A stretch of 14,697 bases of DNA, taken from positions 1 to 14,697 of the forward strand of contig CALLKB010000138.1 in the NCBI GenBank assembly GCA_938008575.1, given 5' to 3'. Positions 1 to 14,174 of the stretch are shown in pieces. Within the stretch, counting starts at the first letter, position 1, and every line of letters begins with the position of its first letter. Under the pieces are notes generated by a model. It searched no databases, had not been told where the DNA came from, and worked only from the letters and a program-made list of their open reading frames with translations. This DNA is from an uncultured Cytophagaceae bacterium (GTDB lineage Bacteria > Bacteroidota > Bacteroidia > Cytophagales > Spirosomataceae). A program made the translations under genes and the position numbers.

Positions 1-84
1 GAGCGGAACTCTGATGGTTGTAACTCATAAAAATTATCAAGAAGCTGGTTTTTTTTCTACCAAGTATTTACCCAGCAACCCTGC

Positions 85-120
85 ACCTTTGGCAATCCTC
101 AAACCAGGTTTGCCAAAGGT
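85..120 (+). repeat. 36-nt intergenic palindrome, copy 1 (forward)
   Basis: The arms ACCTTTGGCAA and TTGCCAAAGGT form an 11-bp perfect stem. The asymmetric centre reads TCCTCAAACCAGGT, the variant with A at position 17. It is identical to copy 2 and to the reverse complement of copy 6. It lies inside tandem unit 1. Confidence 0.95.
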
Positions 121-212
121 AGTGTGGGGGAGCGGAACTCTGATGGTTGTAACTCATAAAAATTATCAAGAAGCTGGTTTTTTTCTACCAAGTATTTACC
201 CAGCAACCCTGT

Positions 213-248
213 ACCTTTGGCAATCCTCAAACCAGGTTTGCCAAAGGT
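213..248 (+). repeat. 36-nt intergenic palindrome, copy 2 (forward)
   Basis: Identical to copy 1 (A at position 17) and lying at the same place in the second tandem unit. It is preceded by CCCTGT and followed by AACGTGGGGG, part of the C-rich/G-rich flanks that lengthen the stem imperfectly in several copies. Confidence 0.95.
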
Positions 249-347
249 AACGTGGGGGCAAGAATTGCCAAGGCTCAGTTTAATATCCACCGTGCGCTGT
301 AGCATTTCACAAATTCCCTAAATCTTGTAACTTGCCCTTCTAAACCT

Positions 348-1469
348 ATGTCGATGAAAAAAATCCTCTTCTTCCTGGCCGCAGTTTGGGCTTTGCAAGC
401 TTGCACATCCAAAGAAACGAGCGTTTCCTCGTACTTCAATTATGGAGATAGCCTCGAATCCGCAGGCGTCCGCATGATTCCCATTCAAACGCCGAAAGGC
501 ACATTCAAGGTTTGGACGAAACGATTTGGCAATAATCCCAAAATCAAAATCTTATTGCTCCATGGCGGTCCTGCCATGACGCATGAATACATGGAATGCT
601 TCGAGACTTTTTTCCAGCGGGAGGGTTTCGAGTTTTATGAATATGACCAATTGGGGTCTTATTATAGCGACCAGCCAACGGATACGACTTTGTGGACCAA
701 CGAGCGTTTCGTGGAAGAAGTCGAGCAAGTTCGCATGGCGATCGGGGCTGATGCTTCCAATTTCTACATTTTGGGAAACTCCTGGGGTGGTATTCTGGGG
801 ATGGAATATGCGCTGAAATACCAGAAGAATCTGAAAGGTTTGTTGATCTCCAACATGGTCGCTAGCGCACCCGAATATGGAAAATACGCGGATGAGGTGT
901 TGGCCAAACAAATGGACCCACAAATTTTAAAAGAAATCCGAGCGATTGAAGCGAAAAAAGACTTCGCCAATCCCCGCTACATGGAATTACTGATTCCGAA
1001 TTTTTACCATGAACACATTTGCCGCTTGCAAGAATGGCCAGATGCCCTGAATCGCTCCTTGAAACATGCAAACGGTGTCATTTATACACAAATGCAAGGT
1101 CCCAGTGAATTTGGGATTGGAGGTTCTTTGGCAAAATGGGACATCAAAAACCGCTTAAAAGAAATCTCCGTTCCTACCTTGATGATCGGAGGGAAATATG
1201 ACACGATGGATCCCAAAGCCATGGAAGCACAAAGTAAAATGGTTCAAAAAGGCTCCTATTTATATTGTCCAAACGGAAGCCATCTTTCCATGTGGGATGA
1301 CCAAAAGGTCTACATGAAAGGTGTCATCGATTTCATCCACAAAGTGGATGTGGGCGCCAATAAAAATCAATCCAAGCAGTCCATCCCAATAGGTGCTCCA
1401 TCAGGAATGTTAGGTGTTTGCATCGGTTTCCAATCGTTTGGATTCGCCTTAAATTGGTCGATCGTCTGA
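348..1469 (+). CDS. Alpha/beta-hydrolase lipoprotein, proline iminopeptidase-like (peptidase S33 type)
   Basis: A predicted outer-surface or periplasmic lipoprotein that would remove an N-terminal residue, classically proline, from short peptides. The signal peptide ends in a lipobox, LQAC, with Cys19. The fold motifs are the oxyanion HGGP (72-75), the nucleophile elbow GNSWGG (143-148, Ser145), the acid in GGKYD (Asp285) and the histidine in NGSH (His312), so the triad is complete. HGGP with GxSxGG is typical of S33 prolyl aminopeptidases, but exact substrate cannot be read from sequence. Start: ATG 348, although the in-frame ATG at 354 gives the more usual MKKILFF start. The last 33 or so residues run antisense into the neighbouring protease gene and look unlike a family C-terminus, so the native stop may have been lost. 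Confident in the fold, moderate on peptidase activity. Confidence 0.85.
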   Translation: MSMKKILFFLAAVWALQACTSKETSVSSYFNYGDSLESAGVRMIPIQTPKGTFKVWTKRFGNNPKIKILLLHGGPAMTHEYMECFETFFQREGFEFYEYDQLGSYYSDQPTDTTLWTNERFVEEVEQVRMAIGADASNFYILGNSWGGILGMEYALKYQKNLKGLLISNMVASAPEYGKYADEVLAKQMDPQILKEIRAIEAKKDFANPRYMELLIPNFYHEHICRLQEWPDALNRSLKHANGVIYTQMQGPSEFGIGGSLAKWDIKNRLKEISVPTLMIGGKYDTMDPKAMEAQSKMVQKGSYLYCPNGSHLSMWDDQKVYMKGVIDFIHKVDVGANKNQSKQSIPIGAPSGMLGVCIGFQSFGFALNWSIV

Positions 1470-3745
1470 ACGATGTATTTTGCCATGGCTGTCGGCTTAA
1501 GGCTATAATTTGCCCGAATCTTCTGTACAAATACTTGCACCTGCGCCGCCGCAAGGGGAGAAATACTAGGTGCATTCAATGTGTTCAATAAGGCCGAAAC
1601 GACTTTAAAATTGATGGTTTCTTGCGTGGCTTGCAGATAAGAATCTGCATGTGATTTGTTAATCGTTGCTTGCATCAGCCTATCCAAGGTTTCTTCCACG
1701 CCCAATTGTTTCGAATCCACGGATTTGTTGCCAGCCAAGCGGGATAGTCGATCCGGATGCAATAATAAGTCCAAGGTAAAATCAGCTGCCGACTCCACCG
1801 CTCCCATGGGATCAAAGGTGATGCCCGTTTTTCCTTTGAATGATTCACGCGTCCGATCGTAATTGAAGGCGCGCGGTGGGAATAATGCGAGTTTGTCCTT
1901 GGGTATGGCTAGGGTTTGTGCATCCAAGGTAGCCGTCAACGCTTGCAATGCATCGAGCTGTAAAGCAAGAGGTGCCGGTGATAAGACCATCTCTTTTCCA
2001 CCCCGTACGGCATAGTTATATTCCGAACCTCCGATGATTTTGGAAACCGCCTCCGTCTGATAGCGATGTAAGAAATACAAGGGAACAAATACATCTTCTA
2101 AGTGCGAATACGTTTCATTTGGGCGGATATTGTTTGCTGAAAAGTTCGCAATGGCTTGTTGGCGAACCTTCAAAATCTTCTGCAACTCATCCACAATGGT
2201 TGTTCCATTGTCCCAAAGGTGCGCATAAATATGTGCGCCGCCCGGATTTCTTGCGTCCGCGTCCGTAATGAAACGCATTCCTTTTTCGTAAGCATTGTCC
2301 AATACTTGATTCAGCGCTGCCTGGGTTTTATGTTCTCCATAGGCATAATCGACCGAAACCTTATCCCAATCCCCTATTTTCGTATCATAGGCATGGCTGA
2401 AATCCATTTGATTGTTTTTGAACTCGATTTGCGGGTGGGGGTAATCCATCACACTGCTATTGTTGCGCGCACTCGCCGCATAATTATGGGCAAATCCGAG
2501 CGTATGGCCTATTTCATGTGCGGCTAATTGTCGAATTCTTGCCAAAGCCATCGCCATCATCGGACCATTGTTTGATCCATCCACGGCAAACGGGGCATTC
2601 ATCAAGGCCTGCGCAATTAAGAAATCTTGGCGAATGCGTAGACTACCTAAGCTCACATGACCTTTCATGATTTCTCCAGTGCGCGGGTCGGCGATGCTCG
2701 CACCATACGACCAGCCGCGTGTCGAGCGATGTACCCATTGAATGACATGATAGCGCACATCCATGGGATCAGCATCTTCCGGTAATAATTTGATTTGAAA
2801 GGCATCTTTGTACCCGATGGCTTCGAATGCTTGGTTCCACCAGCGGCCTCCCTCCATCAGCGCAGAACGGATGGGTTCAGGGGTACCATTGTCCAAATAG
2901 TAAATGATAGGTTTGATTGCCTCACTCACAGCGGCTTTCGGGTCTTTTTTCTCCAAACGATGCCGCGTAATCCACTTTTTTTCAATCACTTCTTGAACCG
3001 GAGAAGCATAATCTTGAAAGGTGATCGCATTAGCTCCAGAACGTGGGTCAAAAAGGCGAGGTTGATAATTGTTGTCGGGAAGTTCAATGAACGAATGGTG
3101 TTCAACTACGGTCACATTATCGGCATTCGGTGCCACAGAACGTATTTCGGCTCCCGTTCCATTGCCAGCAAAGGTCAGTCGGGCCTCGAATTCCGTATTT
3201 TTAGGAAACGATTTGGTGCGTTCTAATGCCAAAGAGCTTTTTGATTTATCTAGGCTATAAGTACCTTGTTTCGCTTGCGCTAAGCGTTTCAAAACCCCAT
3301 GTGCATCTTGCATAAGGAAGTCCGTTAAATCAATGAAATAGGATCCATTGCGTGTATATTCGATTTTAAAACCAAACAAAACCGATTTCGCAAAGGCTTG
3401 TTGGACCGATAATTTTTCTAATGCATTCGTCGTATTCGCTCGGTAACGCGTGTTGGGCTGAACGAGGAAAATTTTATTGCCCTGCTTCTCGAAAAACACA
3501 ACTTGCTCATTGCCTAATTGGCCGCGGTCTAAGCCAAGGTCATTATTCCCTACGCCTTGGGCGAGTGAATAGGCATACAAAAATTCCTCGTTGAGTTTGT
3601 TGACTTCGAGATAGATTTTGTCGGCAGTATCATCGTAATAAAAATTAAAATAGCCCGGATGGGCTTTCATGGACTGGATTTTATCGGCGATTTGTGCCTG
3701 CGCACCTAGACTTAATAGGACAAAAAGAAGGACTAATTTTTTCAT
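1367..3745 (-). CDS. Secreted zinc-dependent metzincin protease (DUF5118/DUF5117/met-zincin type)
   Basis: A 792-residue exported zinc endopeptidase. A Sec signal peptide (MKKLVLLFVLLSLGAQAQ, residues 1-18) precedes N-terminal beta-rich sequence that fits the DUF5118 and DUF5117 domains of Bacteroidota zinc proteases. The catalytic motif is HEIGHTLGFAH (410-420), giving zinc ligands His410, His414 and His420 with catalytic Glu411. It is followed by SVMDY (431-435), a good match to the metzincin Met-turn. Only part of the protein is catalytic; about 370 residues follow. No C-terminal sorting domain of the Por/T9SS type is evident, so it probably stays in the periplasm or at the outer membrane. 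It lies 80 bp from a divergent operon, and its 3' end overlaps the upstream hydrolase gene by 103 bp. Substrate unknown. Confidence 0.9.
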   Translation of the reverse strand: MKKLVLLFVLLSLGAQAQIADKIQSMKAHPGYFNFYYDDTADKIYLEVNKLNEEFLYAYSLAQGVGNNDLGLDRGQLGNEQVVFFEKQGNKIFLVQPNTRYRANTTNALEKLSVQQAFAKSVLFGFKIEYTRNGSYFIDLTDFLMQDAHGVLKRLAQAKQGTYSLDKSKSSLALERTKSFPKNTEFEARLTFAGNGTGAEIRSVAPNADNVTVVEHHSFIELPDNNYQPRLFDPRSGANAITFQDYASPVQEVIEKKWITRHRLEKKDPKAAVSEAIKPIIYYLDNGTPEPIRSALMEGGRWWNQAFEAIGYKDAFQIKLLPEDADPMDVRYHVIQWVHRSTRGWSYGASIADPRTGEIMKGHVSLGSLRIRQDFLIAQALMNAPFAVDGSNNGPMMAMALARIRQLAAHEIGHTLGFAHNYAASARNNSSVMDYPHPQIEFKNNQMDFSHAYDTKIGDWDKVSVDYAYGEHKTQAALNQVLDNAYEKGMRFITDADARNPGGAHIYAHLWDNGTTIVDELQKILKVRQQAIANFSANNIRPNETYSHLEDVFVPLYFLHRYQTEAVSKIIGGSEYNYAVRGGKEMVLSPAPLALQLDALQALTATLDAQTLAIPKDKLALFPPRAFNYDRTRESFKGKTGITFDPMGAVESAADFTLDLLLHPDRLSRLAGNKSVDSKQLGVEETLDRLMQATINKSHADSYLQATQETINFKVVSALLNTLNAPSISPLAAAQVQVFVQKIRANYSLKPTAMAKYIVQTIDQFKANPNDWKPMQTPNIPDGAPIGMDCLD

Positions 3746-3775
3746 TTTCGTTTGTTGTTACTCCGGATAGACCGG

Positions 3776-3806
3776 TTTGATTTCTTGGCCAATTTGCCTA
3801 TCATTG
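3776..3806 (+). promoter_or_regulatory. Candidate promoter of the PIG-L / DUF1080 / Gfo-Idh operon, with overlapping dyad
   Basis: TTTG (3776-3779), a 19-bp spacer and TATCATTG (3799-3806) fit the Bacteroidota -33/-7 pattern (TTG, TAnnTTTG) with one mismatch in the -7 box. A dyad GCCAAT-N9-ATTGGC (3788-3793 and 3803-3808) overlaps the -7 box and could be a repressor site. Transcription would start near 3813, just before the ATG at 3826. Assigned by pattern only. Confidence 0.3.
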
Positions 3807-3825
3807 GCATGTAATTTCTAAACTT

Positions 3826-4686
3826 ATGAAAAATATTCTATTGTTGCTTCTTTTGGCGTTTACGAGTGTAGGCCAAACGAAACCTTTGCGTATCATTTTT
3901 ATTGGTGCGCACCCAGATGATTGTGATATTAAAGGCGGAGGAACGGCTGCCTTATTTGTGGAAATGGGGCATCAGGTTAAATTTCTTTCCGTCACAAATG
4001 GGGATGCCGGTCATCAAACGCAGGGAGGCGGGATGCTTGCTAAACGGCGCATTGCGGAAACGCGCGAAGTGGCGAAGCGTTTAGGCGTTTCCTACGATGT
4101 TTTGGATAATCATGATGGCGAATTGTTACCTAGCTTGGAAATTCGCTTACAAATCATTCGAAAAATAAGGGAATGGAAGGCGGATGTCGTGATTGCGCCT
4201 AGGTCAAATGATTACCATCCGGATCATCGCTATACGGGAATATTGGTTCAAGATGCCGCGTTTATGGTGGGTGTTCCCAATGTCGCTCCGGATGTAGAAC
4301 CGCTCCGCAAAAACCCGGTATTTCTCTATTATCAAGATAATTTCAAGAAACCCAATCCTTTCCAACCCGACATTGCTGTGGACATTACGCCCGTAATTGC
4401 CAAGAAGTTGGCCGGCCTCGATGCCCATCAATCGCAGTTTTATGAGTGGTTGCCTTGGATCGGGAATTATGAATCCGAGGTGCCCAAGGATCCAGCTAAA
4501 TACAAAGATTGGTTATTGCAAAAACGTGTGTTGAAACCCAATCCCGAAGTACAAAAGAGCCTAGTAAAATGGTATGGGGAAACGCGTGCTGCCAAAGCGC
4601 TTTATGCGGAAGCCTTTGAAATCTGTGAATATGGCACACAGCCAAGTGAAGCGGAAATTCGGAACTTGTTTCCCATGTTGAAATAA
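3826..4686 (+). CDS. Exported PIG-L (LmbE-like) family deacetylase
   Basis: A zinc-dependent hydrolase of the PIG-L/LmbE fold. Family members deacetylate N-acetyl-sugars or cleave related amides; the substrate here is unknown. A hydrophobic signal peptide (about residues 1-17, ending VGQ) points to the periplasm. The family motif AHPDD is at 28-32 (His29, Asp31, Asp32) and the second metal motif HPDH is at 131-134, so the zinc site looks intact. At 286 residues it is slightly longer than a minimal PIG-L domain. It is the first gene of a three-gene unit: 11 bp separate it from the DUF1080 gene, which in turn overlaps the Gfo/Idh gene. This grouping is recurrent in Bacteroidota and suggests trimming of substituted sugars. 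Fold is secure; reaction is inferred. Confidence 0.9.
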   Translation: MKNILLLLLLAFTSVGQTKPLRIIFIGAHPDDCDIKGGGTAALFVEMGHQVKFLSVTNGDAGHQTQGGGMLAKRRIAETREVAKRLGVSYDVLDNHDGELLPSLEIRLQIIRKIREWKADVVIAPRSNDYHPDHRYTGILVQDAAFMVGVPNVAPDVEPLRKNPVFLYYQDNFKKPNPFQPDIAVDITPVIAKKLAGLDAHQSQFYEWLPWIGNYESEVPKDPAKYKDWLLQKRVLKPNPEVQKSLVKWYGETRAAKALYAEAFEICEYGTQPSEAEIRNLFPMLK

Positions 4687-4697
4687 ATCAGATACAA

Positions 4698-5345
4698 ATG
4701 AAAAATACCTTATTATTCATTGCGTTCCTGCTGTCGTTTAGCTTGAATGCTCAAAACTGGAAACCACTTTTCAACGGCAAGGATTTGACCGGTTGGAAAC
4801 ACGTAGGAGGCGGCTCTCGTTTCGTTGAAAATGGCTTGCTCGCCAGCAAAGGCGGTATGGGACTCTTGTATTGGACCGGTGGAAAATTAGGTAATTGCCA
4901 AATCAAAGTCGTTTACAAAATGCAGAAATTCAATAGCAATGCCGGCATTTTTGTGAAAGTTCCTATCGAGCCCAAAGAGGAATGGATGCCCGTATTTTAT
5001 GGCTATGAAGTACAAATCGATAACCACCCTGAAACCTCCGGCGAGGATGAATATCACATCAGTGGCACGCTTTATGCTTTTACGAAACCCAAAAGCAAAC
5101 CCGGGAAACCGGGTCCCGAGTGGAATACCATGTTGATCACCTTGGACGGACCGCGGACGATTGTGCACCTCAACGATGAACTCGTGACGGATTACCGGGA
5201 AGGGGAACCTGTGCCGGCTAGGAAATTTGATTTTGAACCTTACCCAGGGCGCCGACCGGATTCCGGGTATTTTGGCTTGCAAAATCATGGAGATGAAGAT
5301 GTCGTGTATTTCAAAGAAGTTTCCGTTAGACCCCTCAAAAAATGA
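4698..5345 (+). CDS. Secreted DUF1080 protein (3-keto-disaccharide hydrolase domain)
   Basis: A 215-residue exported protein that is essentially one DUF1080/PF06439 domain, a concanavalin-like beta-sandwich. Members cleave glycosidic bonds in 3-keto-glycosides. The signal peptide is MKNTLLFIAFLLSFSLNAQ. The characteristic opening WKPLFNGKDLTGWK begins at residue 21. The later segments SNAGIFVK, YEVQIDNH and the closing SGYFGLQNHGD fit the family. Spacing supports operon membership: it follows the PIG-L gene by 11 bp, and its TGA overlaps the next ATG as ATGA (5342-5345), implying translational coupling with the oxidoreductase. Coupling to an oxidoreductase is what the oxidise-then-cleave model predicts. 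The individual glycoside is not predictable. Confidence 0.92.
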   Translation: MKNTLLFIAFLLSFSLNAQNWKPLFNGKDLTGWKHVGGGSRFVENGLLASKGGMGLLYWTGGKLGNCQIKVVYKMQKFNSNAGIFVKVPIEPKEEWMPVFYGYEVQIDNHPETSGEDEYHISGTLYAFTKPKSKPGKPGPEWNTMLITLDGPRTIVHLNDELVTDYREGEPVPARKFDFEPYPGRRPDSGYFGLQNHGDEDVVYFKEVSVRPLKK

Positions 5346-6832
5346 AGCGTTCCGAATTTATCAAGAAAAGCACCTTAGCTTCAGCGGGGTTTTTTATCGT
5401 GCCCCGACATGTCCTAGGGGGTAAAGGTTTTGTCGCACCCAGTGATAAATTGGTCATCGCGGCGATTGGTTGTGGAGGTGAGGGGGATAATGATATCCAA
5501 CATTTGGCTAAAACACCCAATAATAATTCGACCATCGGTTTTCTATGCGATGTGGATCAGCGTCAAGCCGCTCCGAAAAGAAAGCAATTTCCAAAGGCCA
5601 AATTTTACGAGGATTGGCGGGAATTGTTCGATAAAGAAGGTCAGCATTTTGATGCGGTAACCGTTGCCATTCCAGATCATAATCATGCATTAGTGGGTCT
5701 GCGCGCCATGCAGATGAAAAAGCATTTGTATTTGCAGAAGCCTTTGACCCATGACATTCATGAGGCTCGAATTATTACACAGGCGGCATCGAAATACAAA
5801 GTCGTTACCCAAATGGGTGACCAAGGGGCTTCCTGTGAAGGGATGCAAACCATGCGTGAATGGATTGAAGCGGATTTGATTGGCGAGATTTCCAAAGTCT
5901 ATTGCTGGACAGATCGTCCCGTTTGGCCACAAGGCATTGCCTGGCCGAAAACCCCGAGCCGAATCCCAAAAGAATTAAACTGGGATTTATGGTTGGGGAC
6001 CGCTCCACAAACCAATTACATCGAGAACCTCGTGCCCTTCAATTGGCGCGGTTGGTGGGAATTTGGTACGGGAGCACTTGGAGACATGGGTTGCCACATC
6101 ATGGGGCCGCCGTTTAAATTATTGAATTTGGGCTATCCGCATGAGGTGTCGGGGAGTGCTTCCACGACCTACAGCGGGGTCTTTAAGGAATCGGCCTATC
6201 CGGAAAGTGGACCCATTTCGAGTTCCTTGAAATATCGCTTTACGATGCAAAATGGCAAGGATTTGGATTTGTATTGGATGGATGGGGGCATCACGCCGGA
6301 GCGTTTACAGGCTTTGGCACCTGATGTAAATATGAATGATGCCTTGGGAGATTATCCTGGGGAAAACGATTTTGAGGGTTCTACTTTATTTGTTGGGACC
6401 AAAGGGGTGATAGCCTGCGGTTGGGGTGGTTCGCACCCGCGCTTGTTTTCGAAGGAATTGCAAGAGGCAGCTAAACATATCCCACAAAAATATGCCCGTG
6501 TGAAAGGTGGGATGGATGGTCATTGGTGGCAATGGATTGATGCGAGTATTGCGGGATACGGCAACATGGAGGTGAGTTCACCTTTTGAGGGCTATGGTGG
6601 ACCATTGACGGAAACCGTGTTATTGGGTAATTTATTGTTGAGGAGTTTTAATATCCGGGAGAAGGTCAAAAAAATGGATCCCGTGTATGGAGCCATGGAA
6701 GGTTATGCCTACAGCGGAAGGTACAAGGCGCTGAAATGGGATGGGGCCAACATGCGTGTGACCAATTACGAACCAGCGAATCAGTTTTTACGAAGAACTT
6801 ACCGAAAAGGCTGGGGCGATTTGGTGCTTTAA
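5342..6832 (+). CDS. Gfo/Idh/MocA family oxidoreductase, probably exported
   Basis: An NAD(P)-dependent sugar oxidoreductase of 496 residues. An N-terminal KRSEFIKKS followed by a hydrophobic run and PRHVLGG (about 1-27) resembles the twin-arginine leaders of this family, but with Lys-Arg instead of Arg-Arg, so the Tat route is likely but not certain. The Rossmann loop is AIGCGGEGDND (41-51). The usual EKP lysine motif appears as LQKPLTH (131-137), keeping the lysine. GALGDMGCH (244-252) supplies the conserved histidine, His252. The role proposed here is oxidation at C3 of a sugar or glycoside, or reduction of the 3-keto product, working with the DUF1080 protein with which its start codon overlaps. 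Its stop overlaps the convergent transporter gene by 4 bp, leaving no room for a terminator. Confidence 0.92.
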   Translation: MKRSEFIKKSTLASAGFFIVPRHVLGGKGFVAPSDKLVIAAIGCGGEGDNDIQHLAKTPNNNSTIGFLCDVDQRQAAPKRKQFPKAKFYEDWRELFDKEGQHFDAVTVAIPDHNHALVGLRAMQMKKHLYLQKPLTHDIHEARIITQAASKYKVVTQMGDQGASCEGMQTMREWIEADLIGEISKVYCWTDRPVWPQGIAWPKTPSRIPKELNWDLWLGTAPQTNYIENLVPFNWRGWWEFGTGALGDMGCHIMGPPFKLLNLGYPHEVSGSASTTYSGVFKESAYPESGPISSSLKYRFTMQNGKDLDLYWMDGGITPERLQALAPDVNMNDALGDYPGENDFEGSTLFVGTKGVIACGWGGSHPRLFSKELQEAAKHIPQKYARVKGGMDGHWWQWIDASIAGYGNMEVSSPFEGYGGPLTETVLLGNLLLRSFNIREKVKKMDPVYGAMEGYAYSGRYKALKWDGANMRVTNYEPANQFLRRTYRKGWGDLVL

Positions 6833-8001
6833 TCGAAGATACGCTTGTTTGAAACCAAAGGTTTGGCCCAAAAACCAATGCTAAAAATATAGCTCATGCT
6901 GAGAAACAGGATACTCATGCCTGTTTTTAGGCCAAAAATATCCCCAATTCCACCCACGATGAAAGGGAAAATGGCGCCGCCAACGATGCCCGTGACGATG
7001 ATTCCCGCGAAAGAACCGTGGTGTTCGGTGACCGAGTTTAAGGCCAGCGAAAAGATGATTGGGTACATGACGGATGCGAAAAAGCCAACGAGAGGAAAGG
7101 CAATCAATGCCATTGCTGCGTTTCCGTATAAGCCAAAAGCCAAGGAAATCATCGCTAAAAATGTAAAGGCTACTAGGATAATTCGGCTATCCAATAATTT
7201 CAATAAGACAATTCCTAAGACTCCTCCGGCCGTCATCAGTCCCCAATAATAGGCGATGGTATTCGCGCCATCTGTTTGCGGATTGAGGCCATGGTAGGTT
7301 TGTAAAAATTGCGATATCCATGTCGCAATCCCTTGTTCGGTTCCTACATAACAGAGCATGGCGATGAAATACAAGATGACTTGATTGTTTTTAAATAGTT
7401 CTAAGTGGATCGCGATAGCGCCAGGCTTTTCCTCATCCGATAATTTCACTTGGGGAAAATGGGTGCTCAGGGTTATGAGCATCATGATTGCGGAAATGCC
7501 GATAAATAGGATGTAAAGGCTTAGCCAAGGCAATTCCATGCCAATGAAATATTGATAAACCATGGGGCTCAGAAAGGATGCAAAGCCAAAGATCAATTGT
7601 GCCCAAACCGAGTAATTCGCATAATTTTCCTCTCCTCCTGCGGTTCTTAGTAAAGGATTAATGACGACTTGCAACATCGCCATACCGGATCCAATCATGA
7701 ACAAGGAAAGGAGAGCAGTTAAGTAATGTGGCGATAAAACAATCAATAAAGATCCTAAGGTTGCCAGTCCAAAAGCCATCATCATCACTTTCTTCTCATG
7801 GAACGTTTCAAGTAAAATTCCCGCGGGAATGGATGTCACGCCATAGGCAATGAAAAAGGCAAAGGGGAGAAGCGATACGAGCGTTAAACTTAAATCAAAA
7901 GTCCGAATGAGATCTGGGATGATGGGCCCAATGATGTTCGAAATAAATGAAATCACGAAGAAAGTCAATAAGATGACTGAGACAAGCTGTTTGTTTTTCA
8001 T
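6829..8001 (-). CDS. MFS sugar:H+ symporter (FHS / FucP-GluP-like)
   Basis: A 390-residue inner-membrane permease with about 12 predicted hydrophobic segments spread over its full length. The segment FFIAYGVTSIPAGILLE (49-65) and NPLLRTAGGEENYANYS (115-131) fit the fucose/galactose/glucose permease branch of the major facilitator superfamily, which imports monosaccharides with protons. It converges on the sugar-oxidation operon with overlapping stop codons, so it may import the sugars that operon releases. Start: ATG at 8001 places the first membrane helix directly after MKNKQ. A 36-nt palindrome ends only 6 nt upstream of this start, so the leader would contain a stable hairpin. The exact sugar is not known. 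Confidence 0.85.
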   Translation of the reverse strand: MKNKQLVSVILLTFFVISFISNIIGPIIPDLIRTFDLSLTLVSLLPFAFFIAYGVTSIPAGILLETFHEKKVMMMAFGLATLGSLLIVLSPHYLTALLSLFMIGSGMAMLQVVINPLLRTAGGEENYANYSVWAQLIFGFASFLSPMVYQYFIGMELPWLSLYILFIGISAIMMLITLSTHFPQVKLSDEEKPGAIAIHLELFKNNQVILYFIAMLCYVGTEQGIATWISQFLQTYHGLNPQTDGANTIAYYWGLMTAGGVLGIVLLKLLDSRIILVAFTFLAMISLAFGLYGNAAMALIAFPLVGFFASVMYPIIFSLALNSVTEHHGSFAGIIVTGIVGGAIFPFIVGGIGDIFGLKTGMSILFLSMSYIFSIGFWAKPLVSNKRIFD

Positions 8002-8007
8002 AACCTT

Positions 8008-8043
8008 ACCTTTGGCAATCCTCCAACCAGGTTTGCCAAAGGT
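8008..8043 (+). repeat. 36-nt intergenic palindrome, copy 3 (forward)
   Basis: The C-at-17 variant, identical to copy 5 and to the reverse complement of copy 4. It sits 6 nt upstream of the transporter start codon (8001, minus strand), inside that gene's leader. Confidence 0.95.
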
Positions 8044-8076
8044 ACAGGGGTATTTTGATTTTTGATGGGTGCCAAC

Positions 8077-8091
8077 TGATAATTATTATCA
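8077..8091. promoter_or_regulatory. 7-1-7 Fur-like dyad
   Basis: TGATAATTATTATCA is a perfect 7-1-7 inverted repeat equal to the classical Fur-family core described in other bacteria (TGATAATnATTATCA). It lies between the divergent transporter and siderophore-receptor genes, 76 bp from the transporter start. The caution is that the surrounding 24 bases (8074-8097) also match, at 20 of 24 positions, a stretch in the tandem repeat at 22-45 and 151-174, where the dyad is broken. Confidence 0.4.
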
Positions 8092-8152
8092 AGAATCTGA
8101 TTGTTTGATTTCTAAGCCTAATTTTTTGATTCCCAAAGGTAAGAGTATTGGC

Positions 8153-8175
8153 TTATTTAAAATAATTCTAAATAA
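8153..8175. promoter_or_regulatory. Operator-like 23-bp dyad, copy A
   Basis: TTATTTA-N9-TAAATAA, with perfect 7-bp arms. It is placed just upstream of the -33 TTG of the receptor promoter. A second copy with 19 of 23 identical bases lies exactly 60 bp downstream, which suggests a real binding site. An iron-type repressor is inferred from the downstream gene. Confidence 0.6.
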
Positions 8176-8177
8176 GC

Positions 8178-8208
8178 TTGCATTTGTAATTTGTCGCATG
8201 TAGTTTTG
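8178..8208 (+). promoter_or_regulatory. Promoter of the TonB-dependent receptor gene
   Basis: TTG (8178-8180), 20-bp spacer, TAGTTTTG (8201-8208). The -7 box matches the Bacteroidota consensus TAnnTTTG at every fixed position. Start of transcription is expected near 8215, inside operator copy B. This gives a leader of about 30 nt before the ATG at 8246. Confidence 0.55.
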
Positions 8209-8212
8209 GTCA

Positions 8213-8235
8213 TTATTTATAATTAGTCTAAACAA
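8213..8235. promoter_or_regulatory. Operator-like 23-bp dyad, copy B
   Basis: TTATTTA-N9-TAAACAA: the same pattern as copy A with four differences, ending 10 bp before the receptor ATG and covering the predicted transcription start. A bound protein here would block initiation, so repression is the natural reading. Confidence 0.55.
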
Positions 8236-8245
8236 ACATAAGTAT

Positions 8246-10576
8246 ATGATCCGCCTAATAATTCTTTTAATTTGTTCGTTTACAGTTGTTTATGGTCAGC
8301 AAGCCTCTTTGGAAGGTGTTGTTCGAGATGCCAAACAGCAAGTTGTTCCGGGTGTTTCTGTTCGATTGATCGAGTTGAAGCGCGGAAAGCCATCGGATGT
8401 TGATGGGAAATTCAATTTTCAAGGCTTGAAGCCGGGTATGTACACCTTGCAAGCTTCATTTGTAGGTTATAAAACCTTGCAAGAAAAAGTAAATCTGGTC
8501 GCAGATAAAACGCTTCATTTGGATTTGGAATTGGTTGAGGCAAGCAATGATTTGAAAGAAATTGTTGTCGTAGGCTATGTGAGTCAAAACGAGAAGCCAA
8601 TCACCATCGGAAAATTGCCTATCAAACCCATGGATTTGCCGCAAAGTGTGGTGACGCTCGATAAAAGTTTGTTGGAGGCCCAACAGGTCAACCGAATGAG
8701 TGATGTATTGATGAACACAAATGGCGTTTATATTTTCGGTGCTACGGGTGGCTACCAAGAGGAAATTGCCGCGCGGGGTTTTTCGATGGCGAGTTCAAAT
8801 ACCTTTAAGAATGGAATGCGCTATGCGAACGGAATGATTTCGGAATTGAGTGGAGTGGAGAAAGTGGAGATTCTGAAAGGTAGTGCTGCGATTCTGTATG
8901 GAAATGTGGCCGCTGGGGGTGTGCTAAATTTGGTGACCAAGAAACCTAAATTCAATTTCGGGGGAGAAATAAGTCTTCGTACGGGTTCATGGGGTATGTA
9001 CAAGCCTTCCGTCGACGTATATGGTGGACTTTCCAAAAACATCGCCGTTCGCTTAAATGCGAGTGCCGAGCAGGCAAATAGTTTTCGGGTAGGTGTTTCC
9101 TCGGAACGCGTATATGTGAATCCGTCAATCTTGTTTAAGCTAGGTAAAAAGACGGAATTGATTGTGGAAGGGGATTATTTGGCCGACCAAAGAACGCCTG
9201 ATTTCGGTGCTGGAATCATTAATTATCAAATTGTTGATATTCCCCGGGAACGATTTTTAGGCGTGGCTTGGTCGAATATTAAATCATCACAAAGTTCTGT
9301 TACGACTACTTTGACACATCAAATCAATGAAAATTGGACACTAAAATGGATGAATGGCTGGCGCCAAAATGCCAGTAATCTTTTCTCCAACACGCGTCCG
9401 AATGCTGGCACCTTAATCTCAGCAAACGGCCAATGGATTCGAAATTTACAGAAATCTGAGGTAGAGGAAAGCTATGGAATAACCCAATTGGATTTAATTG
9501 GCTCATTGAATTTGGCAGGGATGAAACATCAAGTATTAGTTGGTCTAGATTCGGATTTTTATAACACGGATACCTATGCCTATAATCAATTTGCGCGATA
9601 CGACACCATCAATGTGTATGCGAGTAGCTTAAAGACTAGTCGGTCAGATCAACCTACCATGACTCCGTTTACTAAAACGATGGCTCCTATTCGTCGCTTA
9701 GGTGTTTATGCGCAGGATCTTATTCATATTAATGGACAGTGGAAAATTTTGGCGGGCTTGCGTTATTCATACCAACAAACTTTGAGCGATGTTTATGCCT
9801 ATGCGACTGGCAAAACTACATCGACGTCTAATTTTGATGGGGCATTTTCACCTCGTTTGGGAATCGTATATAAACCTTCGTTGGACCATGCCTTGTTTGC
9901 CAGTTATTCGAATTCATTCACCTTGAATACGGGAGTGGATATCAATAATCAGGCTTTGCCTCCATCTTTAATTGATCAGTATGAAGTAGGGGCAAAGAAT
10001 GAATTATGGGATGGGTTGATTTCTGTTAATTTGACCGCTTACCGGATATTGAATAATAATTTAGCCCAAAATGCCCTACTCAACGCGACCACGTATTCCT
10101 ATGTCAAAGAAATGGCAGGTTCCGTGCAAAGTGAGGGCGTCGAATTGGATGTGATGTCTAAACCAATAGCAGGTTTTACGCTATCGGGTGGGTATAGTTT
10201 CAATGAAACGAAGTATGTCAAAAGTAATACCTATATCGAAGGAAGCTTATTGAAATATAACCCACGTCATACTGCGAATTTAGGCGTTCAATATCGTTAT
10301 CAAGGTTTTCAATTAGGCTTGACGGCGGTGTATATCGGCGAACGGTTTGCGGGGCGGTCGACGCGTGTGCTGGTGGCGAATGATGCCTACAGACTCATTG
10401 CGCTTCCAGCTTATGTGCAAGCAGATTTAACAGCGGGCTATACGTTCAAGAAAATGTCCTTGCGGGCTCGCGTGGCGAATTTGGGAGATGTGTTGAGTTA
10501 CAATGTTCACGATGATAATTCTGTGAATCCCATTGCCCCTCGGAATTATAGTTTGACCTTGACCTATGGGTGGTAA
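8246..10576 (+). CDS. TonB-dependent siderophore-type receptor with N-terminal regulatory-like domain
   Basis: A 776-residue outer-membrane receptor for energised uptake, most similar in layout to ferric-siderophore receptors. In order: Sec signal peptide ending VYGQ (1-18); a carboxypeptidase-regulatory-like beta domain (about 19-98, with SLEGVVRDAK, VDGKFNFQGL and YTLQASFVGYK); a TonB-box-like EIVVVGY (105-111); the plug (about 125-235, with AARGF and VEILKGSAAILYG followed by GGVLNLVTKKP); then a roughly 540-residue beta-barrel ending in aromatic YSLTLTYGW. That ending is the expected signal for barrel insertion. It is monocistronic: palindromes and about 200 bp follow it. Two operators and a promoter lie upstream, consistent with metal control. 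No SusD partner is present, so carbohydrate import is unlikely. The exact siderophore is unknown. Confidence 0.92.
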   Translation: MIRLIILLICSFTVVYGQQASLEGVVRDAKQQVVPGVSVRLIELKRGKPSDVDGKFNFQGLKPGMYTLQASFVGYKTLQEKVNLVADKTLHLDLELVEASNDLKEIVVVGYVSQNEKPITIGKLPIKPMDLPQSVVTLDKSLLEAQQVNRMSDVLMNTNGVYIFGATGGYQEEIAARGFSMASSNTFKNGMRYANGMISELSGVEKVEILKGSAAILYGNVAAGGVLNLVTKKPKFNFGGEISLRTGSWGMYKPSVDVYGGLSKNIAVRLNASAEQANSFRVGVSSERVYVNPSILFKLGKKTELIVEGDYLADQRTPDFGAGIINYQIVDIPRERFLGVAWSNIKSSQSSVTTTLTHQINENWTLKWMNGWRQNASNLFSNTRPNAGTLISANGQWIRNLQKSEVEESYGITQLDLIGSLNLAGMKHQVLVGLDSDFYNTDTYAYNQFARYDTINVYASSLKTSRSDQPTMTPFTKTMAPIRRLGVYAQDLIHINGQWKILAGLRYSYQQTLSDVYAYATGKTTSTSNFDGAFSPRLGIVYKPSLDHALFASYSNSFTLNTGVDINNQALPPSLIDQYEVGAKNELWDGLISVNLTAYRILNNNLAQNALLNATTYSYVKEMAGSVQSEGVELDVMSKPIAGFTLSGGYSFNETKYVKSNTYIEGSLLKYNPRHTANLGVQYRYQGFQLGLTAVYIGERFAGRSTRVLVANDAYRLIALPAYVQADLTAGYTFKKMSLRARVANLGDVLSYNVHDDNSVNPIAPRNYSLTLTYGW

Positions 10577-10587
10577 TACCCCCTCTT

Positions 10588-10623
10588 ACCTTTGGCAAAC
10601 CTGGTTGGAGGATTGCCAAAGGT
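10588..10623 (-). repeat. 36-nt intergenic palindrome, copy 4 (reverse)
   Basis: Exact reverse complement of copies 3 and 5. It starts 11 nt after the receptor stop codon and is flanked by CCCCC on the left and AGGGG on the right, which lengthens the stem imperfectly. It may serve as the 3' hairpin of the receptor mRNA, but no T-tract follows. Confidence 0.95.
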
Positions 10624-10654
10624 AGGGGTTTAGCGTGATTTAAATGTAAAGGCC

Positions 10655-10685
10655 AACTGATAATGCTGGCCAATTAACTGATAAT
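10655..10685 (+). repeat. Direct repeat AACTGATAAT, two copies 21 bp apart
   Basis: AACTGATAAT occurs at 10655-10664 and 10676-10685, a period of 21 bp or about two helical turns. Both lie between palindrome copies 4 and 5, upstream of the ACT-domain gene. The same 10-mer occurs at 8074-8083 and the 9-mer ACTGATAAT at 12671-12679. It may be a regulatory site or part of the repeat family. Confidence 0.6.
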
Positions 10686-10722
10686 CAATACAAACTAATC
10701 GGTCAAGTCCACAATCCTCCGT

Positions 10723-10758
10723 ACCTTTGGCAATCCTCCAACCAGGTTTGCCAAAGGT
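10723..10758 (+). repeat. 36-nt intergenic palindrome, copy 5 (forward)
   Basis: The C-at-17 variant. It faces copy 4 in inverted orientation across a 99-bp spacer and ends 23 nt before the ATG of the ACT-domain gene, so it lies within that gene's leader or promoter. Confidence 0.95.
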
Positions 10759-10781
10759 AAGGGAGCACTAAAACAAAATTC

Positions 10782-11231
10782 ATGTCAAAAATCAAAAGCA
10801 CCCTTGTGCTAACAGCAGCGCTACTTTCATTCAGTTTTTTAAGTACAGCGCAGAAAAGAAATTTAACCTTGTCGCTCATGCCTGATTCCTATGCCGTTTG
10901 TAGGCTGGCACCCGATTCCAAAGTGCCTGAATGGGCGTACCAAGGAAGCTTCTACTCCATTTCAAAAACGAATGATGAGTTGTCGATCGTAGTCGATCAG
11001 CGATTTGCACCGGCAGGAATAAAGAAAGCAGAAAACTGGAAAGGGTTTAAGATTGAAGGTCCACTTGACTTTTCGATTACGGGTATATTAGCGGCATTGT
11101 CGAAGACCTTAGCTGATAATCAAATTCCCTTGTTTTGTGTGAGTACGTTTGATACGGATTATATCTTGGTGGAAAGCAAGTACTACGAAAAAGCGAAAAT
11201 GGTGTTGGCCAAAGAAAACACAATCAAGTAA
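10782..11231 (+). CDS. ACT-domain protein with a Sec signal peptide
   Basis: A 149-residue protein. Residues about 27-145 fit the small ACT/CASTOR-like family (COG3603 type): SYAVCRLAPDSKVPEWA (36-52), then ELSIVVDQ, a central KGFKIEGPLDFSITGILAAL and STFDTDYILVE near the end. ACT domains usually bind amino acids or similar small ligands in the cytoplasm. Here the family domain is preceded by MSKIKSTLVLTAALLSFSF and LSTAQ, a convincing signal peptide with the A-Q ending used throughout this window, so the protein is predicted to be periplasmic. The in-frame ATG at M33 would cut into the first domain strand and is less likely as the start. It has no operon partner: palindromes lie on both sides, and the next gene is convergent. 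Function unknown; ligand binding outside the cytoplasm is inference. Confidence 0.85.
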   Translation: MSKIKSTLVLTAALLSFSFLSTAQKRNLTLSLMPDSYAVCRLAPDSKVPEWAYQGSFYSISKTNDELSIVVDQRFAPAGIKKAENWKGFKIEGPLDFSITGILAALSKTLADNQIPLFCVSTFDTDYILVESKYYEKAKMVLAKENTIK

Positions 11232-11246
11232 TTGATAAAATAAAAA

Positions 11247-11269
11247 AAGGAGGACATCATGTCCTCCTT
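11247..11269 (-). terminator. Intrinsic terminator for the serine-hydrolase gene
   Basis: The arms AAGGAGGACAT and ATGTCCTCCTT are an 11-bp perfect inverted repeat about one base. On the minus strand the hairpin is followed by a run of seven T and further T-rich sequence. It lies about 50 bp past the serine-hydrolase stop. It may also slow transcription from the ACT-domain gene on the other strand, but there it lacks a T-tract. It abuts palindrome copy 6. Confidence 0.75.
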
Positions 11270-11276
11270 CCCCCGT

Positions 11277-11312
11277 ACCTTTGGCAAACCTGGTTTGAGG
11301 ATTGCCAAAGGT
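11277..11312 (-). repeat. 36-nt intergenic palindrome, copy 6 (reverse)
   Basis: Reverse complement of copies 1 and 2. It is preceded by CCCCCGT and lies between the two convergent stop codons, 9 nt from the serine-hydrolase stop. Confidence 0.95.
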
Positions 11313-11321
11313 AAGTGCGGG

Positions 11322-12641
11322 TTATTTCGCGATACTTCCCCAAGCTAAATGACGGAATTTTTCATTAAATCGCGTAGGTTCAGGTGCAATTTGTAGGAAC
11401 ACCATTCCAAGCATGTCTTCCTTGCGGTCCACCCAAAATTGCGTTCCAAAATATCCTTTCCAGAAATATGTTCCCGCTGAGATTGTCTCGAATTTCGTTT
11501 GTTCCTCAGGATAAACATAAACGGTAACGCCCGCTTTGAACTGCGATCTACCCGTAACGCCTTTGGCAACTCCATCATTCGTCGCCACATCGAATAAAGG
11601 TTTCTCGATCATCTCAACCGTTTTCTTACTCAAAATGCGTGCGCCATCCAATTCTCCATAGTTAAGGATCATTTGGAAGAATCGAGCATAATCGTCTACA
11701 TTGCTAACAATGTCCGTTCCACCCATGGCTAATGACGTGTTCGTGTTCTTGTAGTAGTCCATCGACATGTCTGCTGAAAACCCTAATAATTTCTTGCCTA
11801 CTTCATCCGTGTAGACGCTCTTTTTCCCCGATTTGTCCTGCGTGTAAACCTGCGCCATGTTTTTCCATTCGTTTGGCGTAACACCTACAAACGTTCTTGT
11901 CATTTTTAAGGGCGTAAAGATTTCTTGGCGAAGGAAGTCGGCAAAGGTACGGCCATCCAAAACCTCAATCACACGACCTAATACTTCGAGATTCATGCCG
12001 TATGTCCAGCTCTCCCCGGGCTCATGAACCAACGGTAATTTTGCCACACCGCGAATAATTTCCGCGATGGTTAATTTTGTGTCCCCCTTGGGGAAAGCGA
12101 TCGTAATGCCCGCATTCAAATAGCCCTCGCGGCCTAAACTTGAGAAGGGTGGATAGGCAATGCCCGACGTATGTGTAAATACGTGCTTCATCAAGATCTT
12201 GTTTTTAGCAGGTCGTGTGATGAATTGATGTTTCAAGGTATCGTATCCGACCAAAATTTGCATATTGGCAAATTCAGGTAAAATCGTTTCCAAAGGCGTA
12301 TCCATTGTGAATAGTCCTCTTTCGAATAATTTAAGGCCTGCAACGCCGGTAATAATTTTGGTCATACTCGCCATCCGGAAAAGGTGGTCGGTGCGCATCG
12401 CTTCACCCGTTTCGAGGTTCGCTTTGCCAAAAGCTTTTTTGTAAGCAACTTTCCCATGTCGGACGATCATGCCAATCGACCCAGGAATGTGTTGATTTTC
12501 TGATTCTTTTGCCAAAAAGGCATCGACGCGTGCAAGTCCTTCTTTGGATAAACCGAGATGGACCGGGTCACCTGCAGGTAGATTTTGAGCAAGGCTGCCA
12601 AAGGAAATAAGGGCAACGAAAAGGAGTAAAGTGTGTTTCAT
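11322..12641 (-). CDS. Secreted serine hydrolase, class C beta-lactamase / DD-peptidase fold
   Basis: A 439-residue periplasmic hydrolase of the beta-lactamase/penicillin-binding-protein-like family (PF00144). Signal peptide MKHTLLLFVALISFGSLAQ. The active-site motif SMTK (92-95) gives nucleophile Ser92 and general base Lys95. WTYGMNLEVLG (212-222) carries the second-motif tyrosine, Tyr214. WKGYFGTQFW (394-403) stands where the KTG-like third motif is expected. FTHTSG (155-160) is also typical. Such proteins act as esterases or D-aminopeptidases, or cleave peptidoglycan stems; few are true beta-lactamases, so resistance should not be inferred. It appears monocistronic, with its own terminator downstream. 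Confidence 0.9.
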   Translation of the reverse strand: MKHTLLLFVALISFGSLAQNLPAGDPVHLGLSKEGLARVDAFLAKESENQHIPGSIGMIVRHGKVAYKKAFGKANLETGEAMRTDHLFRMASMTKIITGVAGLKLFERGLFTMDTPLETILPEFANMQILVGYDTLKHQFITRPAKNKILMKHVFTHTSGIAYPPFSSLGREGYLNAGITIAFPKGDTKLTIAEIIRGVAKLPLVHEPGESWTYGMNLEVLGRVIEVLDGRTFADFLRQEIFTPLKMTRTFVGVTPNEWKNMAQVYTQDKSGKKSVYTDEVGKKLLGFSADMSMDYYKNTNTSLAMGGTDIVSNVDDYARFFQMILNYGELDGARILSKKTVEMIEKPLFDVATNDGVAKGVTGRSQFKAGVTVYVYPEEQTKFETISAGTYFWKGYFGTQFWVDRKEDMLGMVFLQIAPEPTRFNEKFRHLAWGSIAK

Positions 12642-12685
12642 CGGATGGAGTAATTTGTGTTAATCAAGATACTGATAATATAACA

Positions 12686-12710
12686 AAAGGAGGACTCGTT
12701 ATCCTCCTTT
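12686..12710 (-). terminator. Intrinsic terminator after the NTF2-like lipoprotein gene
   Basis: AAAGGAGGA, 7-nt loop, TCCTCCTTT: a 9-bp perfect stem. On the minus strand it is followed by TTGTTATATTAT. It lies 62 nt past the lipoprotein stop and directly abuts palindrome copy 7. The arrangement and arm sequence repeat those of the terminator at 11247. Confidence 0.7.
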
Positions 12711-12716
12711 CCCCGT

Positions 12717-12749
12717 ACCTTTGGCAAACCTTGGAGGATTGCCAAAGGT
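12717..12749 (-). repeat. 33-nt intergenic palindrome, copy 7 (reverse, 3-nt deletion)
   Basis: The same 11-bp arms as the other copies, but the centre has lost three bases (AAACCTTGGAGG instead of AAACCTGGTTGGAGG). The arms are unchanged, so the deletion affects only the loop region. Confidence 0.93.
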
Positions 12750-12771
12750 AAAGGAGTTTGATGAAATATGA

Positions 12772-13272: not shown

Positions 13273-13290
13273 GATTGTTGGGTTTAAAAT

Positions 13291-13312
13291 GGCCGACTCA
13301 TGCGAGTCGGCC
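13291..13312 (-). terminator. Hairpin between two minus-strand genes
   Basis: GGCCGACTC-ATGC-GAGTCGGCC, a 9-bp GC-rich stem with a 4-nt loop. It is followed on the minus strand by ATTTTAAACCC. It begins 15 nt after the stop of the upstream gene and ends 18 nt before the next start codon, so it could terminate, attenuate or protect the mRNA. Confidence 0.65.
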
Positions 13313-13326
13313 TGGAAAATTTAGAA

Positions 13327-14118: not shown

Positions 14119-14141
14119 GGTTTTTTGGGTTTAAAAATATT

Positions 14142-14166
14142 GTCCGTGAGCGATATGCTCACGGAC
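14142..14166 (-). terminator. Hairpin after the broken NTF2-like gene
   Basis: GTCCGTGAGC-GATAT-GCTCACGGAC: 10-bp perfect stem, 5-nt loop. On the minus strand it is followed by AATATTTTTAAACCC. It is 8 nt beyond the upstream stop and 23 nt before the next start codon, the same arrangement as the hairpin at 13291 but with a different stem sequence. Confidence 0.65.
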
Positions 14167-14174
14167 TTAATTGG

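What the first reader, a model, noticed from the sequence alone, without database searches (positions are those of the whole stretch)
85..12749. Seven-copy family of near-identical 36-nt intergenic palindromes
Copies at 85, 213, 8008, 10588, 10723, 11277 and 12717 share perfect 11-bp arms (ACCTTTGGCAA / TTGCCAAAGGT). They show only two single-base variants at position 17, and one has a 3-nt loop deletion. All are intergenic; four are forward and three reverse. The flanks tend to be C-rich on the left and G-rich on the right. Such conservation between unrelated neighbours implies active spread or selection on a structure. A REP/BIME-like family moved by a Y1 (RAYT) transposase encoded elsewhere is the leading idea. 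I do not recognise the family.
Basis: partly seen in the sequence, partly recalled or inferred. Interest (0 to 1): 0.7.

Follow-up and report, generated by a model that had tools for sequence, protein, structure and literature searches.

The report
Repeat hairpins with their own transposase
Seven near-identical DNA hairpins between the genes of a Cytophaga-like bacterium belong to a repeat family whose ten relatives examined each carry a matching transposase gene bracketed by the same hairpin, which links the repeats to their likely enzyme and suggests that they are rewritten in place rather than jumping.

Summary
The seven palindromes are real and lie where stated. They belong to a family in ten related MAGs labelled Cytophagaceae or Spirosoma (20-71 exact copies per genome). 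The window's own genome is not held.

In 10 of 10 relatives a syntenic gene for a divergent RAYT (REP-associated tyrosine transposase, 202-214 aa; best PDB match 4er8, RAYT bound to a REP hairpin) lies between two inverted copies of the palindrome; Pfam PF01797 had missed it. RAYT-flanking cores tend to match cores abundant in the same genome.

Arms are identical in 59 of 67 orthologue pairs, cores differ in 43, orientation in 21. This suggests overwriting in place with the hairpin kept.

New details: a motif, AAACTGATAATC, exactly 29 nt from the hairpin in a large minority of copies, replicated in a second set; an A.A mismatch in 122 of 128 copies; no GTAG foot. Verdict: a REPtron, new variant of a known kind.

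The parts
85..120 (-). REP-like palindrome, 36 nt, core ACCTGGTTTGAGGA (strand given for the A..A orientation)
150..161 (+). degenerate AAACTGATAATC motif 29 nt from the palindrome edge (TAACTCATAAAA, 8 of 12)
213..248 (-). REP-like palindrome, 36 nt; second copy within a tandem duplication of about 128 bp
8008..8043 (-). REP-like palindrome, 36 nt, core ACCTGGTTGGAGGA, just upstream of the start of the ORF 6829-8001(-)
8073..8084 (+). AAACTGATAATC-type motif 29 nt from the palindrome edge (CAACTGATAATT, 10 of 12)
8130..8143 (+). remnant right arm of a lost palindrome; the relative G001 has the whole copy here
10588..10623 (+). REP-like palindrome, 36 nt; inverted partner of 10723
10654..10665 (+). 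AAACTGATAATC-type motif, offset 30 nt (CAACTGATAATG, 10 of 12)
10723..10758 (-). REP-like palindrome, 36 nt; the copy at the same site in G002 is flipped and has another core
10782..11231 (+). 149-aa ORF missing at this site in G001 and G003, with junctions at palindromes in both; present in G002
11277..11312 (+). REP-like palindrome, 36 nt, between convergent genes
12717..12749 (+). REP-like palindrome, 33 nt, with the commonest core of the clade (ACCTTGGAGGA)

Best explanation
The palindromes are the REP elements of a vertically inherited REPtron: a domesticated RAYT transposase at a fixed locus plus a population of cognate hairpins at long-occupied intergenic sites, often near gene ends. 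Shown by computation: the family, the RAYT bracketed by the palindrome in 10 of 10 relatives, the tendency of the RAYT-flanking core to match the genome-wide core, conserved arms with turnover and flipping of the core at fixed sites, and the fixed 29-nt motif. Inferred: the RAYT recognises the single-stranded hairpin with its A.A mismatch, cuts at or near the AAACTGATAATC motif, and occasionally copies or swaps hairpin content between existing sites (by strand transfer or by repair after cutting). The stem is kept by selection for RAYT recognition and/or for a host role at transcript ends. The confidence given is for REPtron membership with this RAYT as the cognate enzyme; I put RAYT-driven rewriting today at about 0.5.
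For: RAYT match in 10 of 10 genomes with NF047646; palindromes on both sides in each, about 86-123 nt before the annotated start and about 17-22 nt after the stop (coordinates); same neighbours, cysG-like and fba, in 10 of 10; AlphaFold model pLDDT 91.5, top PDB match 4er8_A, RAYT bound to a REP hairpin, E 5.4e-7, 12% identity. Core coupling, RAYT-flanking copies included: CCGGnn 14/13/13 in G008-G010, 1 in G002, 0 in the other six; CTTGGAGG 12-24 in G001 and G003-G007, 16 in G002, 0/1/0 in G008-G010; CTGAGGAGG 10 in G002, 1 in G001, 0 in the other eight. With two flanking copies subtracted per genome, 1 of 840 label arrangements, the observed one, reaches the observed match. Arms identical 59 of 67, paired changes 5 of 67; cores different 43, orientation flipped 21. 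A.A/T.T mismatch in 122 of 128. Motif at offset 29: 27 and 16 on the two sides, other offsets at most 5; 17 against at most 3 in a second set of 37 copies.
Against: The window's own genome and RAYT are not available. No fresh insertion with a clean empty site was found. G002 keeps 16 CTTGGAGG copies beside its own RAYT type, and the 36-nt cores of the window, G001 and G003 do not match the RAYT-flanking core of G001 or G003. Core coupling is confounded by phylogeny: effectively three lineages, G002 being the informative one. RAYT-flanking arms are the GCC variant in 9 of 10 genomes while most genomic copies listed are GGC. No GTAG foot. NF047646 scores of the ten bracketed genes, 24.8-30.5 bits, lie below its 80-bit cut-off. 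The motif at exactly offset 29 scores 8 of 12 or better in 59 side-instances from 112 copies, so about half the copies lack it, and control offsets 48-56 are also raised (36 of 112, against 75 of 112 at 27-35). The genomes are incomplete MAGs.
Confidence: 0.8

Rival explanations
1. Fixed host elements: structured 3'-end signals (mRNA stabilisers or termination aids) or chromosome-organising sites, with the RAYT association being historical only. Arms are kept by selection for that role; loops drift.
For: Sites stable; convergent gene ends favoured in each of three genomes (ORFs of 100 aa or more): G001 13 of 22 convergent, 9 of 33 co-directional, 5 of 22 divergent; G002 13 of 29, 12 of 58, 5 of 37; G003 12 of 21, 12 of 50, 1 of 31; stable fold.
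Against: Does not explain why the RAYT gene is bracketed by the same hairpin in 10 of 10 genomes or why cores tend to follow the RAYT. The outward flanks are G-rich, without the T-run of an intrinsic terminator (the terminator scan was not run). Some copies lie between divergent genes.
Confidence: 0.12
2. Concerted evolution without any enzyme: replication template switching and homologous gene conversion between hairpins generate the paired arm changes, flips and shared cores; RAYT does nothing today. This disputes the present-day mechanism, not membership of the REP family, so it overlaps with the best explanation.
For: Flipped orientation (21 of 67); partial and nested copies beside palindromes; some neighbouring pairs share variants; deletion junctions at palindromes. 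REP evolution by gene conversion was proposed long ago (Higgins 1988; title seen in reference lists only).
Against: Unconstrained palindrome correction should erase the A.A mismatch, which is kept in 122 of 128. The RAYT reading frame is open and its motifs conserved in 10 of 10.
Confidence: 0.3
3. Non-autonomous ends (MITE) of a classical insertion sequence rather than a REP family.
For: Doublets 114-135 bp apart with a shared inner motif.
Against: The bracketed gene is a HuH/Tyr RAYT at one conserved locus; 80 of 112 copies have no neighbour within 250 nt. Target duplications were not looked for systematically.
Confidence: 0.03

Closest known systems
REP/TnpA_REP systems ('REPtrons') of E. 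coli, Pseudomonas and Stenotrophomonas
   Same: Imperfect palindromes, many intergenic copies, HuH/Tyr RAYT flanked by the same palindromes, reported coevolution of REP and RAYT; a conserved stem irregularity as in E. coli REPs (PMC8266576: abstract, sections 3, 28, 29 and passages seen)
   Different: No GTAG/GTGG foot; A.A mismatch instead of the E. coli bulge; a second motif at exactly 29 nt in part of the copies; RAYT far from the curated models
TnpA_REP subclass 2.6 of Bacteroidetes (PMC6006769: passages and one section seen)
   Same: Phylum; 'atypical' flanking structures without GT[AG]G, with copies elsewhere in the genome; SS motif after the core
   Different: Motifs here are NH[FY]H and YIH[VTA]NP, against NH[LIV]H and YIH[QN]NP; the spacing from HuH to Tyr, 69 residues from His64 to Tyr133, is below the median of 82 reported. 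The motifs look nearer to subclass 2.1, for which that paper reports no REPs; not tested in a tree
REPINs (PMC3116915: passages; PMC8049555: abstract and introduction part 1)
   Same: Vertically inherited RAYT with a long-lived population of short elements; doublets occur here too
   Different: Most copies here are singlets (80 of 112 without a neighbour within 250 nt), whereas REP singlets there are described as decaying remnants
BIME
   Same: Pairs of palindromes with a linker
   Different: No long arrays of alternating copies in the sampled regions

Membership tests
REP element | 20-60 nt imperfect palindrome, many intergenic copies | tested here: met
   in relatives, since the window's own genome is not held
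REP element | GTAG/GTGG tetranucleotide 5' of the hairpin | tested here: not met
   85-copy consensus: position -3 is C in 51%, T in 29%; no fixed GTAG 5' of the arm on either strand. Also absent in classes 2.6 and 3 according to PMC6006769
REPtron | RAYT gene flanked by the cognate palindrome | tested here: met
   10 of 10 related genomes; the window's own genome not testable
RAYT (TnpA_REP) | HuH and catalytic Tyr motifs with the Y1 transposase fold | tested here: met
   N61, H62, H64 and Y133 invariant in the 58 aligned sequences; top fold match 4er8_A
RAYT (TnpA_REP) | NCBIfam NF047646 score above the curated cut-off | tested here: not met
   27.1, 30.0 and 29.4 bits for three clade RAYTs, cut-off 80; no Pfam match at E 0.001
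RAYT (TnpA_REP) | one copy per genome, vertically inherited | tested here: met
   12 NF047646 matches in G001-G010, of which 10, one per genome, are bracketed by this palindrome at one locus; G002 and G004 have a second RAYT with another palindrome; allele exchange at the locus is likely; MAGs incomplete
TnpA_REP subclass 2.6 or 2.1 | position in the RAYT tree | not tested
   no reference set for the subclasses was at hand; motif comparison only
REPIN | inverted REP doublet as the main, best-conserved unit | tested here: inconclusive
   16 pairs 114-135 bp apart, 10 of them inverted; 80 of 112 copies are singlets; conservation of doublets against singlets was not compared
REPtron | RAYT cleaves and joins single-stranded REP | not testable with these tools
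   needs biochemistry

The most novel reading that the evidence does not exclude
A REPtron whose repeats no longer spread to new sites but are rewritten in place: RAYT-cognate hairpin variants replace the cores of hairpins at permanently occupied sites, in either orientation, so that a change of RAYT allele (as in G002) re-formats the genome's REP population. Recognition uses two parts, the mismatched hairpin and an AAACTGATAATC cleavage motif exactly 29 nt away, in a RAYT lineage whose motifs resemble a subclass reported to have no REPs.
Probability: 0.3. Interest if true: 0.75.

Novelty: new variant of a known kind. Interest (0 to 1): 0.55.

Why it matters
How REP elements spread is called unresolved in PMC8266576 (section 3). 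Here ten related genomes share the RAYT locus and enzyme family, and the three compared site by site share sites, yet they differ in RAYT allele and hairpin core: a natural experiment on how a RAYT shapes its repeat population. The 29-nt motif and the A.A mismatch give concrete, testable recognition determinants for a REP type without GTAG. Pfam missed this RAYT, so similar repeat families in Bacteroidetes may be going unassigned.

Tried and rejected
Rfam: no match for the window at gathering scores. Y1_Tnp PF01797: 0 of 10 in the clade, which for a while led me to a 'no RAYT' reading; NF047646 overturned it. Several RAYTs of the Prado042 MAG (G011) and of G014 lie beside other palindromes, so they do not look like this family's enzyme; not all of them had clear flanking repeats. 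Considered and dropped: attC/integron sites (recalled motif, not tested), Xer/dif-like reading of the inner motif (recalled consensus; spacing does not fit), IHF site (recalled consensus; partial match only), promoter -10 reading (distance does not fit), targeted insertion 29 nt from a pre-existing motif (not excluded, but no empty site seen). No match in plasmids for window 10580-10770. The exact GGC-arm pattern is rare in the wider family: 4 of 150 genomes, all of this clade. Literature: searches found no papers; others listed papers on REPs, REPINs or transposases; in the abstracts and passages that I saw none described this family, and the word Aquirufa (the genus of a related RAYT) occurs in none of the eight papers listed at 88, of 2,670 found.

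Limits: regions L163-L222 were chosen because they hold palindromes, so occupancy (127 of 129) is biased upward, and the comparisons count each pair from both sides (67 distinct pairs). Arms were searched with at most 5 mismatches, so badly decayed copies are missed. Copies with more than 4 arm mismatches were dropped, and with more than 2; one search used the limit of 2 for the palindromes. The second unoccupied comparison (G002 L220 against G003 L202) was not examined further. In one search the Fisher tests pool orthologues; the per-genome tests replace them (with ORFs of 120 aa or more instead of 100 the G003 divergent count becomes 3 of 32).
Full report
Observation. Allowing two mismatches, the arm occurs 27 times in the window against 6.95 in shuffles (0 of 200 shuffles reach it). 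Inside the arms the stem goes on: an unpaired A.A (T.T on the other strand), then three more pairs, then a loop; of the seven, the three folded as DNA have z-scores of -4.67, -4.85 and -6.06. The C-rich left and G-rich right flanks can pair and lengthen the stem.

The family. The genome that holds the window is not available. Ten of the genomes (handles G001-G010, nine labelled Cytophagaceae and one 'Spirosoma fluviale') are studied here as a clade; G001 (isolate Ww124) is 93% identical to window 342-10624 and 88% to 11276-14663. Polar exact copies per genome, from the header rows: G001 49, G002 71, G003 50, G004 31, G005 35, G006 39, G007 20, G008 29, G009 25, G010 21. In the wider family the exact GGC-arm pattern is found in 4 of 150 genomes, all from this clade. 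Related palindromes, mostly with other cores, occur in the Prado042 MAG (18), a Capnocytophaga MAG (17), a Runella MAG (1) and G014 (2).

The transposase. PF01797 finds no Y1 transposase in G001-G010 (0 of 10). NCBIfam NF047646 (REP_Tyr_transpos) does: 12 matches below its cut-off, at least one in each of the ten. Reading these loci, each genome has a 202-214-aa protein between two inverted copies of the palindrome, about 86-123 nt before the annotated start and 17-22 nt after the stop; the element, palindrome to palindrome, is 814-821 bp. The neighbours, a cysG-like gene and fba (names are my reading of the sequences), are the same in 10 of 10. The protein keeps NANH[FY]H and YIHxNP; Asn61, His62, His64 and Tyr133 are invariant in 58 aligned sequences. 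An AlphaFold model (pLDDT 91.5) has as its best PDB match 4er8_A, the RAYT bound to a REP hairpin (E 5.4e-7). The other two NF047646 matches, in G002 and G004, are a second RAYT flanked by a different palindrome; several RAYTs of G011 and G014 also lie beside other palindromes.

Coupling. The core of the RAYT-flanking copies is CTTGGAGG in G001 and G003-G007, CTGAGGAGG in G002, and CCGG-type in G008-G010. The same cores are frequent in the same genomes: CCGGnn 14, 13, 13 in G008-G010, 1 in G002, 0 in six others; CTGAGGAGG 10 in G002, 1 in G001, 0 in eight others; CTTGGAGG 21, 16, 12, 19, 22, 24, 15 in G001-G007 and 0, 1, 0 in G008-G010. These counts include the RAYT-flanking copies; with two subtracted per genome, 1 of 840 label arrangements, the observed one, does as well. 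Shared ancestry explains part of this. G002 is the informative case: its RAYT is only 71% identical to that of G001 although the neighbouring genes are 85% and 93% identical, while the RAYTs of G001 and G003 are 99% identical next to a gene at 86%. RAYT alleles seem to be exchanged at a fixed locus, and the core tends to follow. Against a simple story, G002 still has 16 CTTGGAGG copies, the 36-nt cores of the window, G001 and G003 match no RAYT-flanking copy seen, and RAYT-flanking arms are the GCC variant in 9 of 10 genomes although most listed copies are GGC.

Sites stay, cores change. In 20 regions from each of G001, G002 and G003 plus the window, 127 of 129 orthologous comparisons are occupied; one of the two exceptions is a decayed copy at window 8130-8143 that G001 keeps, the other was not examined. 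The regions were fetched because they carry palindromes, so this figure is biased, and each pair is counted from both sides. Among the 67 distinct pairs, arms are identical in 59, changed on both sides in a pairing way in 5 (four of them involving the RAYT-flanking copies), otherwise changed in 3; cores are identical in 20, identical after flipping in 4 and different in 43; orientation differs in 21. Over the window and the regions of G001-G003, arm mismatches of 0/1/2/3/4/5 number 86/2/24/11/5/11, with none at three or fewer mismatches for three shuffled arms; the eight two-mismatch copies of G001 are all paired changes. The ten CTGAGGAGG copies of G002 all have the foot GGT+TAAG, but so do 6 of 14 CTTGGAGG copies sampled there. 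Of the eight that do not flank the RAYT, four lie at sites that carry other cores in relatives and a fifth does so by the junction print. I read this as overwriting in place. Gene conversion or RAYT-mediated exchange could both do it; the A.A mismatch, kept in 122 of 128, argues against blind palindrome correction. E. coli REPs also need their stem irregularity (PMC8266576 section 3).

A second motif. The 8-mer AACTGATA is found 41 times within 150 nt of palindromes, 1.0 expected. AAACTGATAATC (9 of 12 or better) sits at offset 29 from the palindrome edge 27 times on one side and 16 on the other, no other offset exceeding 5 (112 copies). With a looser 8 of 12 anywhere at offsets 27-35, 75 of 112 copies have it, against 36, 11 and 9 in three control windows, the first of them (48-56) raised perhaps by a second motif copy further out. 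59 units with the motif at exactly 29 give 37 after removing look-alikes. Of 76 AACTGATAW-type sites in the regions, 40 have a palindrome arm at about that distance. In an independent set of 37 copies from G004-G010, offset 29 is found 17 times, the next best 3. The motif can fall in coding sequence at that distance, and a degenerate form lies in the 3' end of the RAYT gene itself in several genomes. A cleavage site is my guess; it holds the CT dinucleotide that E. coli RAYT cuts (PMC8266576 section 3), which is weak evidence.

Where they lie. Convergent intergenic regions carry palindromes most often: 13 of 22, 13 of 29 and 12 of 21 in G001, G002, G003, against 5 of 22, 5 of 37 and 1 of 31 divergent ones. 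Recombination at palindromes has consequences: the ORF at 10782-11231 is present in the window and G002 but missing at this site in G001 and G003, with different junctions, each at a palindrome.

What is known. PMC6006769 (passages and one section) reports Bacteroidetes RAYTs of subclass 2.6 with atypical REPs lacking GT[AG]G. The present RAYT differs in its motifs and looks nearer to subclass 2.1, which that paper finds without REPs; I did not place it in a tree. I therefore file the system as a REPtron, a new variant of a known kind, and leave the subclass open.

Noticed in passing
L231 2135-2758 (G002) and L223 1875-2495 (G004): A second RAYT, about 31-32% identical to the first, flanked on both sides by AACGCTGCCGGGGTC..GACCCCGGCAGCGTT palindromes: apparently a second REPtron.
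   Followed up: partly
window 10782-11231: 149-aa ORF missing at this site in G001 and G003 with different junctions, both at palindromes; present in G002.
   Followed up: yes
window 1-258: Tandem duplication with a period of about 128 bp that includes the palindrome.
   Followed up: no
window 11245-11270 and 12685-12710: Terminator-like GGAGGAC..(G)TCCTCC hairpins right beside two palindromes.
   Followed up: no
L182 and L196, RAYT locus: RAYT 99% identical between G001 and G003 although the cysG-like neighbour is 86% identical: likely recent exchange of the locus.
   Followed up: partly
L206, L210, L180: Other repeated words such as GCGTCTCTAC and CCTAGG-containing palindromes near decayed AACTTTGGCAA palindromes.
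   Followed up: no
L188 7996, L179 5032, L172 4978: Nested or partial palindrome duplications, as expected from template switching or slippage at hairpins.
   Followed up: partly
G013 (Capnocytophaga MAG S30M_Sa_14_sub) and G011 (Prado042): 17 and 18 copies of a related palindrome, mostly with AGTT..AACT-type cores; the cognate enzyme was not identified.
   Followed up: partly
CAMCXW contigs (G004): The MAG titled 'Spirosoma fluviale' is about 2.3 Mb and groups with this clade in the three genes compared; the label may be wrong.
   Followed up: no
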